Source: Chryseobacterium daeguense DSM 19388
Lineage (GTDB): Bacteria; Bacteroidota; Bacteroidia; Flavobacteriales; Weeksellaceae
Assembly: GCF_000430825.1 (NCBI RefSeq)
Contig: NZ_AUMT01000002.1
Span: forward strand, 248,001-312,000
DNA: 64,000 bases
Direction: 5' to 3'
Part shown: one piece after another, positions 6,696-49,675 of the stretch
Position numbering within the stretch: the stretch's first letter is position 1
How the letters are laid out: each line of letters begins with the position of its first letter
Position numbers and translations under genes: made by a program
Notes under the pieces: model-generated
Databases searched by the model: none
Told to the model about the DNA's origin: nothing
Seen by the model: only the letters and a program-made list of their open reading frames with translations

Positions 6696-8741
6696 ATGAA
6701 TCATAGAGTTTTAGAATTATTAAAGGCCCCGAAAAATATTCAGTCAGAGGATCTCGATCTTCTGAAAGAGGAAATTAATTCTTTTCCCTATGTTCAAAAT
6801 ATCAGAGCTTTGTACCTGTACGGAGTTCATGTTCATGATAAAGAAAACTATCAGAAGGTACTTTCTACAACGGCGGCTTACACTACGGATAAAAAGATTT
6901 TATACCAGTTAATCAACGGTAAAATTCAACACAGGACTAAGCCTGAGATTACAAAAGAAAAACCCGCTCAGGCAGAGAACCCGCTTAAAATTTTATATCA
7001 GACAAAAGCAGGAAGCTTCCCCATTAAAAGAGAAGAGATTTCAGTTGTGGAAACAGAGCCTGAAGCAATTGAAAATATAAAGGAGGAGGAAACAGACAAA
7101 AAAGAACAATTCTCCATTCTTCCTACACCGCCGCAGGAGATCAAACATCTGTATGTGAACGGGGAACGCAACAGGATTTTATTTGAAGGTGAAGAAAACT
7201 TCCTTGAAGATGAAAATGTAGACAGGATTGATCTTGAATCTACTTTAGAATCCGTATCTATTGTTACGCAAAAAACAGAAAAGCCAACGGATAATATTCA
7301 GGGAAATATACATAACGAGGAAATTCCTGTTAAAGAAACGCCTGAAATAGTTGAAGAATTTACTCCTGAAACCATTATCGAAGAAGAGAATATAACTTCA
7401 GAAGCTGAAAAAGAAATTGTAAATGAATCGGAATTAAGTTTCCATGAAACACAATCTTTCTTGCCGGATGTTCAGGTTAATACCAATAAAACGGAAGACA
7501 CAGAAAAGCCTGCAGAAGAGGTTAAAGAATTCGCTAAAACTATTGAATCAGCAGATTTTACTCCTGAAAAAATCATTAATGAAGATAAAATTTCCTCTGA
7601 AAAGGAGACAAAATCTGTTCGTGATGATGAGGAGTTAAGTTTCCACGGAATGCCGTCTTTTTTGCCGGAAGTAAAAATACAGGCTAACGCTGATGAAAAG
7701 GCTCCGGAAATTTCAAAACCAACAATCAATAAGCATGAAGAGGAAATGCGTCGCCTGATTGAAGAGGTTGAGAAAAAAATGAAAGAAAAAGCCGCATCGC
7801 AGGAAATTAAAAAAGAAGAAGAACCGGAAAATATTGGCCATGATATCAGTTTTGCAGAGACACAGAGTTTTGAAGTAAAACCATCAGAACCAGTTACTAA
7901 GAAAGAAGATAAGCCAGAGCCGGCTGCTTTAACAGATATTGTTGAAGATAAATCAGACCAGAAGATTGAAGAAACTCAGGTTAATTCTTCATGGAAGCCC
8001 ATGTTTTTCGAATCTAATTTGCCGGACTCTCTAATTAACAAATCTGTAGAAATTCCTTCTGCTCCAAAGCCGGAAGTTTCCCAGACAGAAGCTAAAAATG
8101 AGGATGTCATTAAACCAGAAGAAATTCTGCCTGAAATAGAAGAAATTCCTGAGCTGGTATTAGATGAATCTGAAAAATTTGAAGGCCATACGCAAGAGCT
8201 GCAAATAGATGAGGAAGCTCCCGAAGCTCCACAGGAGAAAAAAGAGGAAGCTCCGGTAATGAATGTATCTTTCTTCGGTTCCGGATGGACGCTTTCCCAA
8301 TCTGAAAGGCAGGAAAATAACCGCGACACAAAAGAAGAAAATAAGGAAATTAAACAGGAAAAAACCGAAACTAATGCTGCTCAGAATCCTGACAGCAATG
8401 TTCCAGGGTTTATCAATACTTGGCAGAGCTGGCTGAAAATCGACAGAACGGAAGAAAGAGGAAAAGATAAAACAGAGGTTAAAAAGAAAGTAATTGAAGC
8501 CTTCATTGAAAATAATCCTAAAATCAGTCAGTTAAAAGAAGAAGTCAACTTCGTTGTAAAGGAAAAAAATGATGATATTTCACACCTTATGACGGAGACT
8601 CTTGCCAATCTTTATATTGAGCAAAAGCTTTATACAAAAGCAATAAAAGCTTTCGAAGCACTGATTAAAAAAACGCCTGAAAAGAAAGAATATTACGAAG
8701 GAAAAATTCAGGAAATAAAAGATTTCAGAAGTAAAAATTAA
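6696..8741 (+). CDS. Long acidic repeat protein with C-terminal TPR-like domain
   Basis: The 681-residue product starts with an ordered segment (residues 1-80, EDLDLLKEEINSFPYVQNIR), runs through about 470 residues of Glu/Lys/Pro-rich, probably disordered sequence, and ends in a helical TPR-like domain (about 560-681, LANLYIEQKLYTKAIKAFEAL). Within the disordered part a short motif recurs: ELSFHETQSFLP from residue 246, ELSFHGMPSFLP from 313, DISFAETQSF from 383, and a weaker VSFFGSGW at 524. There is no signal peptide or membrane segment, so it is probably cytoplasmic. It follows lptE by one base. Its function is unknown; the motif spacing suggests a multivalent binding partner. Confidence 0.7.
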   Translation: MNHRVLELLKAPKNIQSEDLDLLKEEINSFPYVQNIRALYLYGVHVHDKENYQKVLSTTAAYTTDKKILYQLINGKIQHRTKPEITKEKPAQAENPLKILYQTKAGSFPIKREEISVVETEPEAIENIKEEETDKKEQFSILPTPPQEIKHLYVNGERNRILFEGEENFLEDENVDRIDLESTLESVSIVTQKTEKPTDNIQGNIHNEEIPVKETPEIVEEFTPETIIEEENITSEAEKEIVNESELSFHETQSFLPDVQVNTNKTEDTEKPAEEVKEFAKTIESADFTPEKIINEDKISSEKETKSVRDDEELSFHGMPSFLPEVKIQANADEKAPEISKPTINKHEEEMRRLIEEVEKKMKEKAASQEIKKEEEPENIGHDISFAETQSFEVKPSEPVTKKEDKPEPAALTDIVEDKSDQKIEETQVNSSWKPMFFESNLPDSLINKSVEIPSAPKPEVSQTEAKNEDVIKPEEILPEIEEIPELVLDESEKFEGHTQELQIDEEAPEAPQEKKEEAPVMNVSFFGSGWTLSQSERQENNRDTKEENKEIKQEKTETNAAQNPDSNVPGFINTWQSWLKIDRTEERGKDKTEVKKKVIEAFIENNPKISQLKEEVNFVVKEKNDDISHLMTETLANLYIEQKLYTKAIKAFEALIKKTPEKKEYYEGKIQEIKDFRSKN

Positions 8742-45762: not shown

Positions 45763-45801
45763 TTTTTCTTAAAAAAATATTTGGTGAATAAAAAAATATT
45801 C

Positions 45802-45809
45802 TATCTTTG
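45802..45809 (+). promoter_or_regulatory. Predicted promoter of an orphan short transcript
   Basis: TATCTTTG followed by CACC is an exact TAnnTTTG box in a gene-free stretch. A terminator follows 145 bases later, so the pair defines a short stand-alone unit. Confidence 0.6.
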
Positions 45810-45850: not shown

Positions 45851-45934
45851 ATGTTCAAATTTCAAAAGAATTCTCCGTCTGGATTGCCGCTTACAGTGGT
45901 AAGGCTTCGTGGTTTGGTACACTCTTTAGAATAA
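45851..45934 (+). CDS. Candidate 27-residue small protein or leader
   Basis: The ORF starts ATGTTCAAATTTCAAAAG and ends with TAA, giving MFKFQKNSPSG ... VVRLRGLVHSLE, basic and without a membrane segment. It lies between a good promoter box (45802) and a strong terminator (45952), and no other gene lies between. The sequence also forms a closing stem, ACGAAGC (45843-45849) with GCTTCGT (45904-45910), so it could equally be a structured small RNA. The reading frame alone is weak evidence. The RtcB operon starts 250 bases beyond. Confidence 0.35.
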   Translation: MFKFQKNSPSGLPLTVVRLRGLVHSLE

Positions 45935-45951
45935 CAGTATAATGAAATATC

Positions 45952-45985
45952 AAAACCCGAAGTCGTAAAGATTTCGGGTTTTTTA
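45952..45985 (+). terminator. Strong terminator of the orphan short transcript
   Basis: AAAACCCGAA (45952-45961) pairs with TTCGGGTTTT (45973-45982), a 10-base perfect stem followed by T bases. Confidence 0.9.
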
Positions 45986-46044: not shown

Positions 46045-46134
46045 GAGCTGATCCCGCTTTCCACTATATCTTTTTATTACGGCCTCCGCTTCGCTGCGGC
46101 CGCCACAAAAAAGGATGCCGTTGCAATCGGGGCT
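46045..46134. repeat. GC-rich nested inverted-repeat element
   Basis: Nested arms are visible: GGCC(T)CCGC and GCTGCGGCC close to each other around a TTC loop (46081-46101), TATATCTTTTT pairs with AAAAAAGGAT, and the outer AGC..CCCG pairs with CGGGGCT. The GC-rich core stands out from AT-rich surroundings. The stretch 45986-46234 holds no convincing ORF. I believe similar elements occur between genes in Chryseobacterium, but I cannot check that here. A 15-residue-like palindrome of the AAACCTGTTAGGTTT type follows at 46144. Confidence 0.55.
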
Positions 46135-46143
46135 AGTAACAAA

Positions 46144-46234: not shown

Positions 46235-46987
46235 ATGGAAAATGATAACCTTCTGTTTTCAAGATTAAGAAGTCTGAGAAGCAGAAAAAGAATAATAAAA
46301 AAAGATGTAGAAAAACAGATTAGAAAAAAGTATTTACGTAGCGATGAACTTTGGAAAATAAAAAGAAATATTCCGTTAGTACCATTGGAAAAACCATATC
46401 AAAAGGGTTTTGTAAGGTTTTTTGTGGTAAGAGATGATGTAAAACGATCCAAAAACGGAGATTTTTTCCAAGGAATACTGAATAAAATCAATACAAAAAT
46501 GTATTCCGAAACCAGAAAATTCATAAAGAAAAAAAGAAAATTCGGACGAAAGATCTATGTTGAAAGAGATCAGAAATTGGTTCAGCTTTCAGCATATCAG
46601 TGGAACGATCCAAAGTTAGGGTTAACACCCCGAGAAAAACAATATTTTCTGAAAAAGGAAGAATACAATTCATTCAGAAAAAGGTATAACATTTACTACG
46701 AATTTATCGAACCTTGGAGATTTGCATTAAGGGTAGAACCTAACATAATTACCCATTACAAACCTTTAAACTCTGATTTGGAGAAAGAATATGATGAACT
46801 CAATTCTTATTTAAATCAACATAAAATTGTTGGACTAATCAATAAGAAAATTCATGGTAAATCAGGAAACTGGAAATGCTACGGTAAAGAAGCTAATCTT
46901 GTCGAAAGTAAAAAATACTTTCACTACAAAATATCTGCAGCAGAGATTGCAGAAGTCTTAGAGGACTTTAGTGTCCAAAAATTTTAA
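46235..46987 (+). CDS. Unknown basic protein, first gene of the RtcB-PrfH operon
   Basis: The 250-residue product is strongly basic, with a Lys/Arg-rich N-terminus (LRSLRSRKRIIKKDVEKQIR) and an internal KFIKKKRKFGRKI. It contains no signal peptide, membrane segment or catalytic motif that I recognise. Aromatic and charged repeats (YQWNDPKLGLTPREKQYFLK; FIEPWRFALRVEPNIITHYK) suggest an ordered fold, possibly RNA-binding. It lies 9 bases before rtcB and is separated from upstream genes by gene-free DNA, so it is probably the first gene of the operon. The function is unknown; a part in RNA recognition is an inference from charge and context. Confidence 0.65.
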   Translation: MENDNLLFSRLRSLRSRKRIIKKDVEKQIRKKYLRSDELWKIKRNIPLVPLEKPYQKGFVRFFVVRDDVKRSKNGDFFQGILNKINTKMYSETRKFIKKKRKFGRKIYVERDQKLVQLSAYQWNDPKLGLTPREKQYFLKKEEYNSFRKRYNIYYEFIEPWRFALRVEPNIITHYKPLNSDLEKEYDELNSYLNQHKIVGLINKKIHGKSGNWKCYGKEANLVESKKYFHYKISAAEIAEVLEDFSVQKF

Positions 46988-46996
46988 ACAAAAACA

Positions 46997-48388
46997 ATGG
47001 GAAATTTAAAACTTAAAGGAAAAGATATATTAAAAATAGGTTATCCAAACAATCAGAGCGTAAATATCGCTTTGGAAGTTATGAAAAGGAATTTTGCAAC
47101 CAAAAATATTCATCATGTGAAATCTCTTTTAAAGGAAATCCTGATCAATCCGGAGAATTTTGAAAAAGATTTAACCTTCGGACAAATCGCAGAAGCCCTG
47201 CTTTCATCAAAGAAAACAGAAAAAAGAATGCTCAATACAAACCGGGCTTCTTTTCAGGTTTTCGGAAATAATATTTCAGATGAAGCAAAGAATCAATTGT
47301 ACACTGCATTGAAGCTGCCCATTGCAACACAGGGAGCTTTGATGCCTGATGCACACAGCGGCTATGGACTTCCGATAGGAGGAGTTCTGGCGGTGGAAAA
47401 TGCCGTGATTCCGTATGGGGTCGGAATGGATATTGGCTGCCGAATGAGCCTCAGTATTTTGGATACGCCCGTTTCATATCTTGACGGAGCAAGAGACAAA
47501 TATGAAAAAGCTCTTGCCGAACACACAAAATTCGGGATGTACGAAACGCACAAATCTCATGTCGATCACGAAATTTTCGACAGAGATACGTTCGATTTAA
47601 TTCCGATTTTGAGAAGACTAAAAGGAAAAGCCATCAAACAAATGGGAAGTTCCGGTGGCGGAAATCACTTTGTAGAGTTCGGGGAAGTGGAAATCACTGA
47701 AGAAGACGAGCAGATCGGGCTTCCGAAAGGAAAATACCTCGGAATTCTTTCTCACAGTGGTTCGCGCGGATTGGGAGCTGAGATCGCTCAATATTATTCA
47801 AGAGTTGCTACAGAGCAATGTCCGTTGCCGAAAGAAGCGCAGAACTTCGCATGGCTGGATCTGAACACGCATCTCGGATTAGAATATTGGACGGCGATGA
47901 ATTTGGCGGGAGATTATGCTTCAGCATGTCATGATGATATTCACAGAAGATTGGTGAAGGCAGTTGGTGGAAGAGTGAAAGCCAAAATTGAAAATCATCA
48001 CAATTTCGCCTGGAAAGAATTCCACAACGGAAAAGAAGTGATCGTCCACAGAAAGGGCGCCACTCCGGCCAATGAAAATGAATTGGGAATGATCCCCGGA
48101 TCAATGACCGCAAAAGGTTTCATCGTTCGCGGTAAAGGAAATCCGGATTCTTTGAATTCAGCTTCACACGGAGCTGGAAGAGCACATTCCAGAGGTGAAT
48201 GCCGAAGTCTTTTTACGCAAAATGACATCAAAAAAGAATTAAAACTAAAAAATGTCACCTTGATGGGTGGAAATACAGAAGAAGCACCCATGGCATATAA
48301 AGACATCAATGAAGTCATGAATGCTCAAAGTGAGCTGGTAGATATTCTTGGAACTTTTCAGCCTAGAATTGTGAGAATGGATAAGTAA
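46997..48388 (+). CDS. rtcB: RNA-splicing ligase RtcB, PrfH-associated type
   Basis: RtcB joins 2',3'-cyclic-phosphate and 5'-OH RNA ends with GTP and Mn2+. The 463-residue product has the metal Cys C148 in GMDIGCRMSL, histidines in GNHFVEF, SHSGSRGLG and HHNFAW, and H391 in SASHGAGRAHSR, the position of the guanylylated His in the family. It is followed by prfH, the arrangement known as RtcB2-PrfH. In E. coli-type systems this pair repairs ribosomes whose 16S 3' end was cut in the decoding centre. A 14-base inverted repeat lies between the two genes. The start at 46997 follows the previous stop by 9 bases. Confidence 0.93.
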   Translation: MGNLKLKGKDILKIGYPNNQSVNIALEVMKRNFATKNIHHVKSLLKEILINPENFEKDLTFGQIAEALLSSKKTEKRMLNTNRASFQVFGNNISDEAKNQLYTALKLPIATQGALMPDAHSGYGLPIGGVLAVENAVIPYGVGMDIGCRMSLSILDTPVSYLDGARDKYEKALAEHTKFGMYETHKSHVDHEIFDRDTFDLIPILRRLKGKAIKQMGSSGGGNHFVEFGEVEITEEDEQIGLPKGKYLGILSHSGSRGLGAEIAQYYSRVATEQCPLPKEAQNFAWLDLNTHLGLEYWTAMNLAGDYASACHDDIHRRLVKAVGGRVKAKIENHHNFAWKEFHNGKEVIVHRKGATPANENELGMIPGSMTAKGFIVRGKGNPDSLNSASHGAGRAHSRGECRSLFTQNDIKKELKLKNVTLMGGNTEEAPMAYKDINEVMNAQSELVDILGTFQPRIVRMDK

Positions 48389-48400
48389 TTTTTGTTGCAA

Positions 48401-48440
48401 GTTTCTGGTTATTAGTTTCCGATTAATAATAACCAGAAAC
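48401..48440. repeat. Inverted repeat between rtcB and prfH
   Basis: GTTTCTGGTTATTA (48401-48414) is matched exactly by TAATAACCAGAAAC (48427-48440) with a 12-base loop. No T-run follows, so full termination is unlikely; it may trim or stabilise the mRNA between the genes. Confidence 0.7.
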
Positions 48441-48461
48441 CAGAAACTAAACTAAATTAAA

Positions 48462-49160
48462 ATGGACAAATTAATACAAATAACCTCAGGAAGAGGACCT
48501 TTAGAATGCCAATGGGTAGTAGCAAAAGTTCTGAAGGTTTTCCTTGAGGATGCAAAAGATAATAAAATAGAGTATGAAATCATCCACCGCGAAAATGGTG
48601 ATGAAAATCTGACCCTGAAATCCGTAACCATTCTTTTAAAAGCAAAAAATATAAATGAATTTTTAAAAAGCTGGCTCGGGAGCATTTGCTGGACAGGAAA
48701 AAGTACATTCCGCAAACTTCATAAAAGAAGCAACTGGTTCATTGGCATTTTTGAGCTTGAAGGTTTGGAGAAAATTGATTTTAAAGAAAAAGATATTCAG
48801 TTCCAGACAACAAGAAGCCAGGGAAGTGGCGGCCAGAACGTGAACAAGGTAAATACAGCTGTCCGGGCAACTCACGTTCCTACAGGGCAAAGTGTTTTCG
48901 TACAGGATTCACGTTCGCAGCTGGAAAATAAAAAGCTGTCAATCACAAGATTAAAGGAAAATGTGCTGGAACAGAATATTATTCAGCTTCAAAAAAGGAT
49001 GCAGGAAACCTGGAACAATCATTTGCAGGTGCAAAGAGGAAACCCGGTCCGTACATTTTCCGGAACAGATTTTAAAAAGAATTATCAGGAAAAATCCTTT
49101 AAAAAACAAAGAAATATTCTGAAAAATGAATTAAAAAACTACAAAAATGACCTTAACTAA
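48462..49160 (+). CDS. prfH: Peptide chain release factor H
   Basis: PrfH is a release-factor-like protein with the peptidyl hydrolase loop but no normal codon-reading domain. The 232-residue product begins MDKLIQITSGRGPLECQWVV, typical of PrfH, and has the GGQ loop at residues 123-125 ([18 protein letters not shown]) and a basic C-terminus (KKNYQEKSFKKQRNILKNEL). It frees peptide from ribosomes with a cleaved 16S 3' end so that the RtcB partner can reseal the RNA. It lies 73 bases after rtcB. The last 14 bases overlap the next gene. Confidence 0.93.
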   Translation: MDKLIQITSGRGPLECQWVVAKVLKVFLEDAKDNKIEYEIIHRENGDENLTLKSVTILLKAKNINEFLKSWLGSICWTGKSTFRKLHKRSNWFIGIFELEGLEKIDFKEKDIQFQTTRSQGSGGQNVNKVNTAVRATHVPTGQSVFVQDSRSQLENKKLSITRLKENVLEQNIIQLQKRMQETWNNHLQVQRGNPVRTFSGTDFKKNYQEKSFKKQRNILKNELKNYKNDLN

Positions 49161-49662
49161 AAGTAAATATTACTTCGAGGCGCTGGATAATTATCCTTAC
49201 AGCCTGCCGGATTGTCTGGAAGCACTAAACTATGCTTTGTCTTACGATCCTGAAGATGCAGACAGTCTTTGTCTGATGGGAAGAATTTACAGCGAAATGC
49301 TGAACGATTACGAAAAAGCAAAGCTGTATTTTGAAGAAGCAATGCAATGTGATGTTACGAATTTAAATGTTCCGCAATATTATATTAAATGTCTTTTGGA
49401 TAATGATGACCTTCAGGAAGCAGATAAGTTGATAGCTTATTCTTTGAAAATTAAAGGGATAGACAAGGTTTCTTTATGGATGTACAGATCCTTACTTTCA
49501 GAAAAAAGAGGAAGCTTGATCAACGCGTTAAAATTTCTGGAAGAAGCTGAAAAATATTGCTTTACCGAGTACAGTTTGAATACAGTAAAAGACCGAAAGA
49601 AATTTGTGAAATCTAAAATGCCGAGGAAAAAAGCAAATAAAAAGAAGAAGGAGACGGATTAA
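49147..49662 (+). CDS. TPR-repeat protein, end of the RtcB-PrfH operon
   Basis: The 171-residue product has tetratricopeptide-like units (LEALNYALSYDPEDADSLCL, MGRIYSEMLNDYEKAKLYFEEAMQCD, then LLDNDDLQEADKLIAYSLKI, SLLSEKRGSLINALKFLEEA) and a very basic tail (KKFVKSKMPRKKANKKKKE). The start overlaps prfH by 14 bases, so the two are probably translationally coupled, and a terminator overlaps its stop. The tail suggests nucleic acid or ribosome binding. Its role in rescue is inferred only. Confidence 0.7.
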   Translation: MTLTKSKYYFEALDNYPYSLPDCLEALNYALSYDPEDADSLCLMGRIYSEMLNDYEKAKLYFEEAMQCDVTNLNVPQYYIKCLLDNDDLQEADKLIAYSLKIKGIDKVSLWMYRSLLSEKRGSLINALKFLEEAEKYCFTEYSLNTVKDRKKFVKSKMPRKKANKKKKETD

Positions 49663-49675
49663 GTCTCCTTTTTTT
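49648..49675 (+). terminator. Terminator overlapping the TPR gene stop
   Basis: AAGGAGAC (49648-49655) pairs with GTCTCCTT (49663-49670) and runs into T7; the stop codon lies in the loop. It closes the unknown-rtcB-prfH-TPR operon. Confidence 0.9.

What the first reader, a model, noticed from the sequence alone, without database searches (positions are those of the whole stretch)
46235..49675. RtcB-PrfH operon with an unrecognised basic protein and a TPR protein
Gene order is unknown basic protein, rtcB, prfH, TPR protein with a basic tail, closed by a terminator. RtcB-PrfH is established for repair and rescue of ribosomes cut in 16S rRNA. The first gene starts 9 bases before rtcB and the fourth overlaps prfH, so they are likely part of the same response. 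The 250-residue first protein is very basic and matches no family I recognise, so it may be an added RNA-recognition or processing factor, or the source or sensor of the damage.
Basis: partly seen in the sequence, partly recalled or inferred. Interest (0 to 1): 0.75.

Follow-up and report, generated by a model that had tools for sequence, protein, structure and literature searches.

The report
Accessory protein of ribosomal RNA-repair operon
This bacterium carries a gene set thought to rescue and re-seal toxin-damaged ribosomes, and its first gene makes a very basic, unstudied protein that goes with this set in several bacterial families; the gene set is known, the protein's job is not.

Summary
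Four same-strand genes lie at 46235-49662: a 250-residue basic protein (here P1; pI 9.9, net +27), rtcB, prfH and a TPR gene, then a terminator-like hairpin. PrfH passes its family cut-off. RtcB passes Pfam's cut-off but not that of the PrfH-associated TIGR03073. P1 matches no family.

The association is real. In 395 Bacteroidota genomes P1 matches in 11 and PrfH in 28; all 11 P1 genomes have PrfH. A second, very divergent P1 branch also overlaps rtcB starts. P1 directly precedes rtcB in 65 of 72 fetched loci. P1 is optional, evolves fast under purifying selection, and is often broken or lost while rtcB-prfH stays. TPR follows prfH in 19 of 21 loci outside the genus.

It is not wholly new: Burroughs and Aravind (2019, PMC6514570) listed TPR, nucleotidyltransferase, zinc-ribbon and a homologue-less charged protein as accessories of this system; P1 is very probably the last.

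Best explanation: an RNA-binding partner, most likely of RtcB, that helps it reach or hold broken ribosomal RNA. This is inferred, not shown. P1's core is predicted with high confidence (pLDDT 92); no clear match among solved folds was found.

The parts
46235..46987 (+). P1: 250-aa basic protein without a database family; predicted long N-terminal helix (residues 14-45), alpha/beta core (46-181), helical C-terminal part
46997..48388 (+). rtcB, RNA ligase family (463 aa)
   Evidence: PF01139 270.9 bits over cut-off 27; below the TIGR03073 cut-off
48401..48440 (+). 14-bp hairpin in the rtcB-prfH gap, the place where many relatives carry extra genes; no T-run follows
   Evidence: z -5.40; for relatives
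48462..49160 (+). prfH, peptide chain release factor H (232 aa, GGQ present)
   Evidence: TIGR03072 211.8 bits over cut-off 166.65; near relative of PDB 9mor
49147..49662 (+). TPR protein with basic tail (171 aa), overlaps prfH by 14 nt
   Evidence: TPR rows below cut-offs; conserved after prfH
49643..49675 (+). terminator-like hairpin with T-run closing the operon
   Evidence: z -4.05
45952..45982 (+). terminator-like hairpin upstream of P1, perhaps the end of an earlier short transcript
   Evidence: z -5.22

Best explanation
The four genes form a flavobacterial version of the RtcB-PrfH ribosome rescue-and-repair operon. Known steps (from relatives, not shown here): when a ribonuclease toxin cuts 16S rRNA in the decoding centre, PrfH enters the jammed ribosome, releases the peptide and lets the subunits part, and RtcB re-seals the 2',3'-cyclic-phosphate and 5'-OH ends. 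Inferred step: P1 is a basic RNA- or ribosome-binding partner, most likely of RtcB and made just ahead of it, that brings the ligase to the damaged subunit or holds the broken ends. It suits particular kinds of damage, so it is changed and lost faster than the ligase. TPR is a scaffold that joins the parts (proposed by Burroughs and Aravind 2019; untested).
For: P1 sits against rtcB across lineages: directly before it in 65 of 72 genome-contig loci. In 10 loci of Empedobacter, Algoriella, Paenimyroides and phylum-sample genomes outside the genus the distance is -11 to +15 nt. A branch only 15-19% identical to P1 (hhalign probability 96, E 3.3e-9; identities) overlaps the rtcB start by 16 nt in L134, L170 and L171. 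In genome G105 the order is shuffled, yet RtcB, P1, ZnR, PrfH and TPR stay within about 8 kb. Co-occurrence: 11 of 11 P1 genomes are among the 28 of 395 with PrfH (hypergeometric 2.7e-14, or 1.7e-11 without the genus). P1 and rtcB are kept side by side in genome G003, which has no PrfH over the cut-off. Basic in all 56 members examined (pI 9.7-10.2, net +18 to +31). The 26 columns invariant in 16 diverse members hold many Arg, Lys and aromatic residues, no His and two acids, D68 and E134. P1 and RtcB divergence correlate (r 0.90 over 75 loci; 15 non-Chryseobacterium loci r 0.50, 5 of 5000 permutations as high). No archease, a known RtcB helper, was found in this genome.
Against: No binding or activity is shown. 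P1 is dispensable: 18 of 60 genus genomes have no match and 3 more have it in pieces, yet 59 of 60 hold prfH sequence. In Capnocytophaga the genes are spread: in G360 (L095) P1, rtcB and prfH lie over about 10 kb of one contig; in G364 P1 and prfH lie about 10 kb apart with rtcB on another contig; C. catalasegens (G362) has P1 but no PrfH over the cut-off and only a 29%-identical RtcB. So a special tie to RtcB rather than to the whole system rests on position and on G003. The correlation of distances may only reflect shared descent. No fold match supports RNA binding.
Confidence: 0.47

Rival explanations
1. P1 is an antidote (immunity-type) protein against one particular ribonuclease toxin, kept next to the general repair genes.
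For: Fast evolution and repeated breakage (dN/dS 0.15 against 0.026 for RtcB; at least 13 genus genomes with fragments only). In Capnocytophaga L099 it lies some kilobases from SUKH and DUF4304 proteins; in L097 a SUKH-SUFU protein and in L095 a NADAR protein is its neighbour.
Against: P1 is strongly basic, whereas nuclease inhibitors are usually acidic (recalled). The close place before rtcB in several families is not expected of a toxin-specific antidote. No toxin partner was identified.
Confidence: 0.17
2. P1 is an RNA-processing enzyme that trims or prepares broken rRNA ends for RtcB.
For: Conserved Arg/Lys/aromatic set in an ordered core; further rRNA degradation may follow colicin E3 cleavage (PMC9223846 Discussion, read), so end preparation could be needed.
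Against: No conserved His in 16 diverse members, and only K27, L51, P54, G58 and T173 invariant over all 19 rows (the alignment of the far branch is uncertain). No enzyme fold match.
Confidence: 0.15
3. P1 is the source of the damage: a ribonuclease toxin whose effect RtcB-PrfH undoes.
For: Basic, often broken while rtcB-prfH stays. MazF rows in Foldseek only at E 2.1 and worse, which is chance level.
Against: No conserved His or obvious catalytic set; purifying selection; rtcB-prfH is kept where P1 is lost, which a toxin-antidote pair would not need.
Confidence: 0.07
4. P1 regulates the operon (nucleic-acid-binding repressor or damage sensor).
For: First gene of the operon; at least 10 of the 13 VIA rows of the core model are winged-helix-type proteins by title or recalled fold, but only at Z 2.0-3.1.
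Against: Such Z values are chance level by the tool's own note; in G105 P1 lies after rtcB.
Confidence: 0.08

Closest known systems
RtcB2-PrfH module of E. coli ATCC25922 (PMC9223846; abstract, Introduction and Discussion read)
   Same: rtcB and prfH as neighbours in one operon; counter-toxin ribosome rescue and 16S rRNA re-ligation is the expected function
   Different: Described there as a two-gene module; here a P1 gene comes before and a TPR gene after; the RtcB here does not reach the TIGR03073 cut-off
RFH-RtcB neighbourhoods with accessory genes (Burroughs and Aravind 2019, PMC6514570; section 2.4 read, Figure 4 legend and other passages seen)
   Same: Lists TPR, Pol-beta nucleotidyltransferase, zinc-ribbon protein and a charged protein without homologues ('RFR' unknown domains in the legend); genes of these kinds occur in the loci surveyed here (the nucleotidyltransferase rows are below Pfam cut-offs)
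   Different: The text gives no accession that I could read, so that their fourth protein is P1 is inferred. The divergent P1 branch, the loss counts, the rate contrast and the core model were not in the passages I read
Archease (RtcB cofactor; PMC3973293, start of abstract seen in a search listing)
   Same: Small protein encoded beside RtcB that helps the ligase
   Different: P1 has no Pfam match and no archease is found in this genome

Membership tests
RtcB-PrfH (RFH-RtcB) repair operon | PrfH of the TIGR03072 family with GGQ motif | tested here: met
   211.8 bits vs cut-off 166.65; GGQ in the sequence
RtcB-PrfH (RFH-RtcB) repair operon | RtcB-family ligase gene beside prfH | tested here: met
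   PF01139 270.9 bits vs 27; 73 nt before prfH
TIGR03073 (release-factor-associated RtcB) | RtcB reaches the curated cut-off | tested here: not met
   140.9 bits vs 271.8; so it is an RtcB beside PrfH, not a member of that equivalog
RtcB-PrfH (RFH-RtcB) repair operon | Rescue and 16S re-ligation after decoding-centre cleavage | not testable with these tools
   protection from colicin E3 reported for E. coli in PMC9223846
'RFR' charged accessory protein of Burroughs and Aravind 2019 (item 4) | Encoded with RtcB and PrfH | tested here: met
   69 of 72 P1 loci have PrfH in the flank held and 2 of the other 3 have it farther along the same contig; 11 of 11 P1 genomes of the phylum sample are PrfH+
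'RFR' charged accessory protein of Burroughs and Aravind 2019 (item 4) | No detectable homologues among known families | tested here: met
   no match above a cut-off or clearly beyond chance
'RFR' charged accessory protein of Burroughs and Aravind 2019 (item 4) | Highly charged helical regions | tested here: met
   net +27, helix 14-45 in the model
'RFR' charged accessory protein of Burroughs and Aravind 2019 (item 4) | Same sequences as in their supplement | not testable with these tools
Archease | Matches PF01951 | tested here: not met
   P1 has no Pfam row; PF01951 not found in the own genome
Nuclease-toxin immunity protein | Lies beside its cognate toxin or in immunity arrays | tested here: inconclusive
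   SUKH and DUF4304 proteins in the same Capnocytophaga locus; no toxin gene identified
MazF-type or other ribonuclease toxin | Shared fold and catalytic residues | tested here: inconclusive
   MazF rows only at Foldseek E 2.1 or worse; no conserved His in the family

The most novel reading that the evidence does not exclude
P1 is a new-fold, dedicated RtcB subunit that aims the ligase at broken ribosomal RNA, so that RtcB repair systems choose their lesion through swappable accessory proteins (P1 of two far-diverged branches, the nucleotidyltransferase, the zinc-ribbon protein) clustered around a fixed ligase, and need PrfH only for ribosomes caught in translation.
Probability: 0.26. Interest if true: 0.72.

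Novelty: new member of a known kind. Interest (0 to 1): 0.45.

Why it matters
Repair of toxin-cut ribosomes has been worked out for RtcB and PrfH alone. A conserved further protein placed against the ligase gene could explain how RtcB finds its lesion, and a test system exists (colicin E3 nuclease in E. coli). The high-confidence core without a clear match to a solved structure is also a good target for structure determination.

Tried and rejected
Read-through or fusion of P1 with rtcB: in the window both are in one frame, but in 28 of 30 loci the gap is 10-27 nt in mixed frames, so rejected. (The other two: L028 has 535 nt; for L001, the window's own copy, the script began at a wrong ATG and its row is void.)

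P1 without PrfH in Capnocytophaga: my first reading, from flanks of 8 kb. 

Remote homology of P1: profiles against PDB sequences gave only weak rows (phosphohydrolase 0.013, phytase 0.014, translin 0.23 and 0.72). No relative among viral contigs: 75 stretches matched a pattern, none was confirmed. Fold searches: whole model Foldseek best E 0.60, VIA best Z 5.7 and 2 of 996 chains at Z 5 or more, BFVD best E 0.23; core alone Foldseek best E 1.1, VIA best Z 3.3, 14 of 550 chains at Z 2 or more, mostly winged-helix proteins. No fold is claimed and none excluded.

Further members of the divergent branch: its profile in 246 genomes of the order found only the three genomes used to build it, plus 10 genomes with ordinary P1.

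Promoter: the sigma-70 scan is at chance (22 found, 24.1 expected). The Bacteroidota-type pattern (recalled) gives one site at 45780-45809, before the upstream terminator, and 8 in the window against 5.75 expected. No operon promoter is claimed.

Papers: searches for PrfH with RtcB, for RNA repair terms, for Chryseobacterium with RtcB, and for RFH with RtcB listed no paper on P1 that I could recognise. The 2016 Burroughs and Aravind RNA-repair paper (recalled) was not among the 10 of 25 records listed. PDB codes 9mor/9mq4 gave three unrelated papers.

Limits: the genome-contig scan used patterns from Chryseobacterium sequences, so it favours near relatives. Related genomes are not independent: six of the eight non-Chryseobacterium P1 genomes in the phylum sample are one genus. 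The dN/dS medians come from 12 loci that I chose. Alignment A2 holds the window's P1 and 55 of the 67 distinct P1 proteins. A first correlation held one locus twice (L139 = L094); one search replaces it. TIGR03072 at E 1e-30 also catches release factor 2; only matches over the cut-off were counted.
Full report
WHAT IS THERE. The four genes are as described: P1 46235-46987, rtcB 46997-48388, prfH 48462-49160 and TPR 49147-49662, with a terminator-like hairpin at 49643-49675. P1 has pI 9.93 and net charge +27; PrfH +14, RtcB +3, TPR 0. PrfH passes its NCBIfam cut-off and RtcB its Pfam cut-off. RtcB fails the TIGR03073 cut-off, so it is a different RtcB branch beside PrfH. The nearest solved PrfH, 9mor, aligns over residues 2-225 at E 6.7e-100; its organism is not given by the tool. 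The host genus is most likely Chryseobacterium: the same-genus genome G024 has a contig of exactly the length of one from Chryseobacterium sp. Leaf405.

P1 IS A REAL, UNNAMED FAMILY. It has no family match above any cut-off. P1 and RtcB differ in rate: for 12 chosen Chryseobacterium loci the median identity is 73% for P1, 96% RtcB, 89% PrfH and 82% TPR, with dN/dS 0.15, 0.026, 0.067 and 0.049. So P1 is under purifying selection but much looser than the ligase.

DISTRIBUTION. Of 60 genomes of the genus, 42 have a P1 match, 3 of these in pieces (G007, G019, G046); prfH sequence is in 59 of 60 (G003 has none over the cut-off; G004 and G040 hold it in two pieces). For the 18 genomes without a P1 match, rtcB was found in 17 of the 18 fetched stretches; the other (G004) ends at the contig edge. 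One of the 18, G010, has a C-terminal remnant of P1 by profile. In the family, 116 of 320 genomes match, in 3 of 33 genera, and at least 13 of the genus matches are fragments or remnants. In 395 genomes drawn over the phylum, P1 matches in 11 (one, G447 at E 1.6e-6, is the divergent branch) and PrfH is over its cut-off in 28. All 11 lie within the 28: hypergeometric 2.7e-14, or 1.7e-11 for the 8 of 8 outside the genus. These values ignore shared descent.

NEIGHBOURHOOD. A scan of species-level genomes brought 72 loci: Chryseobacterium (and one unnamed Weeksellaceae), plus Empedobacter sedimenti, Algoriella xinjiangensis, Paenimyroides tangerinum and three Capnocytophaga. P1 is directly followed by rtcB in 65 of 72. 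In 4 a 162-residue unknown protein lies between; in 1 (L095) rtcB is 3.7 kb away; in 2 (L097, L099) no rtcB is in the flank. PrfH is in the flank in 69 of 72 and TPR in 63 of 72; 67 of 72 have a P1 ORF of 230 residues or more. In Empedobacter, Algoriella and Paenimyroides RtcB is only 57-59% and PrfH 50% identical to the window's, yet P1 (45-48%) still comes first. Of the 21 PrfH-bearing phylum-sample genomes outside the genus, all 21 have rtcB near prfH, 19 have TPR, 7 have P1, 2 more have the divergent branch, 6 the zinc-ribbon gene and 4 the nucleotidyltransferase-like gene. The window has neither of the last two. In the 72 loci the nucleotidyltransferase-like gene sits between rtcB and prfH in 55 and the zinc-ribbon gene occurs in 12 (Pfam hints).

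A SECOND BRANCH. Looking at what precedes rtcB in loci without a P1 match showed basic proteins of 224-231 residues: one each in L134, L170 and L171 that overlaps the rtcB start by 16 nt, and a second copy in L170. Profile against profile, this branch aligns with P1 over 157 columns (probability 96, E 3.3e-9), and its profile finds ordinary P1 proteins in turn at E 4e-5 to 9e-7 in 10 genomes. Identity is only 15-19%, so the residue alignment is uncertain.

PARTNER. Position points to rtcB: in 13 of 13 non-Chryseobacterium loci where P1 or the divergent branch comes just before rtcB, the distance is -16 to +15 nt, which suggests coupled translation. G003 keeps P1 and rtcB side by side without prfH. 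Against: in Capnocytophaga the parts are scattered. In G360, P1, a NADAR protein, a zinc-ribbon protein, rtcB and prfH lie over about 10 kb of one contig. In G364, P1 and prfH lie about 10 kb apart on one contig with no rtcB found between them, and rtcB is on another contig. G362 has P1 but no PrfH over the cut-off and only a 29% RtcB. P1 and RtcB distances correlate (r 0.90 for 75 loci, 0.70 for 60 Chryseobacterium, 0.50 for the 15 others), which shared descent alone could give.

STRUCTURE. The whole-protein model has pLDDT 83 and pTM 0.60. The core alone (residues 46-181) reaches pLDDT 92 and pTM 0.77. Neither has a clear match in the PDB, nor the whole model in BFVD. Weak winged-helix rows (Z up to 3.1) are not evidence. 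In 16 diverse members 26 columns are invariant, among them R10, R15, R19, K27, R61, R66, K84, W161 and R162, with D68 and E134 the only acids and no His. This looks more like an RNA-binding surface than a hydrolase site, but that is inference.

MECHANISM. Shown by others for E. coli: RtcB2-PrfH protects from colicin E3, and rtcB2 alone on a high-copy plasmid also protects (PMC9223846: abstract, Introduction and Discussion read). Those authors suggest that PrfH might attract RtcB2 to damaged ribosomes and that further rRNA degradation may follow the cut. I infer that P1 does for this RtcB what they suggest of PrfH: brings it to, or holds, the broken rRNA. I give this 0.47; antidote, end-processing, regulator and toxin readings share about the same total.

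PRIOR ART. PMC6514570 (section 2.4 read in full; other passages) reports accessory genes around RFH-RtcB: TPR, a Pol-beta nucleotidyltransferase, a zinc-ribbon protein with a basic helix, and a protein with no detectable homologues and highly charged helical regions; [quoted passage not shown] The first three fit what I found, and P1 fits the fourth. I could not read the supplement, so the identity is inferred at about 0.85. PMC1586002 (passages only) is the older report of the two-gene operon. The finding is therefore a member of a published kind. Not in the passages read: the divergent branch, the counts of loss, the rate contrast and the core model.

VERDICT. Observation confirmed; association strongly supported; role open. 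Interest 0.45.

Noticed in passing
L129:8117-9916 (genome G003): Several tandem copies (period about 226 bp) of the 3' end of rtcB with a hairpin lie just after rtcB, and this genome has no PrfH over the cut-off. Origin unexplained.
   Followed up: partly
L032:10231-10776 and 54 further loci: A 181-aa nucleotidyltransferase-like protein (GGWAWHF...DIDVFV; NTP_transf_5, aminoglycoside adenylyltransferase and Lnu rows below cut-offs) sits between rtcB and prfH in 55 of 72 loci but not in the window.
   Followed up: partly
L037:10887-11474; L040:10739-11359; L054:8775-9263: Three further optional genes in the operon of relatives: a 195-aa zinc-ribbon protein (DUF7836 just over its cut-off, YnfU- and Lar-like rows below), a 206-aa and a 162-aa protein without Pfam match.
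   Followed up: partly
window 46046-46138 (-): Flavo-1 RNA (Rfam RF01705, 60.6 bits) antisense just upstream of P1; the genome has at least 20 copies over the cut-off (150 of 1159 first-look candidates scored), so it looks like a dispersed element.
   Followed up: partly
window 45851-45934 (+): Short ORF of 27 codons (MFKFQKNSPSGLPLTVVRLRGLVHSLE, read) behind a Bacteroidota-type promoter match (pattern at chance frequency) and before a terminator-like hairpin; perhaps a leader peptide or small RNA.
   Followed up: no
L095:3232-3852 and L099:2422-5600: Capnocytophaga P1 genes lie in stretches that also hold NADAR, SUKH and DUF4304 proteins, a setting like toxin-immunity islands.
   Followed up: partly
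L167:3432-4949 and 7015-8415 (genome G380): Two RtcB genes within 5 kb, the second beside prfH.
   Followed up: no
own genome G000:C1:75874-76968: A second, distant RtcB (30% identical) elsewhere in the genome.
   Followed up: no
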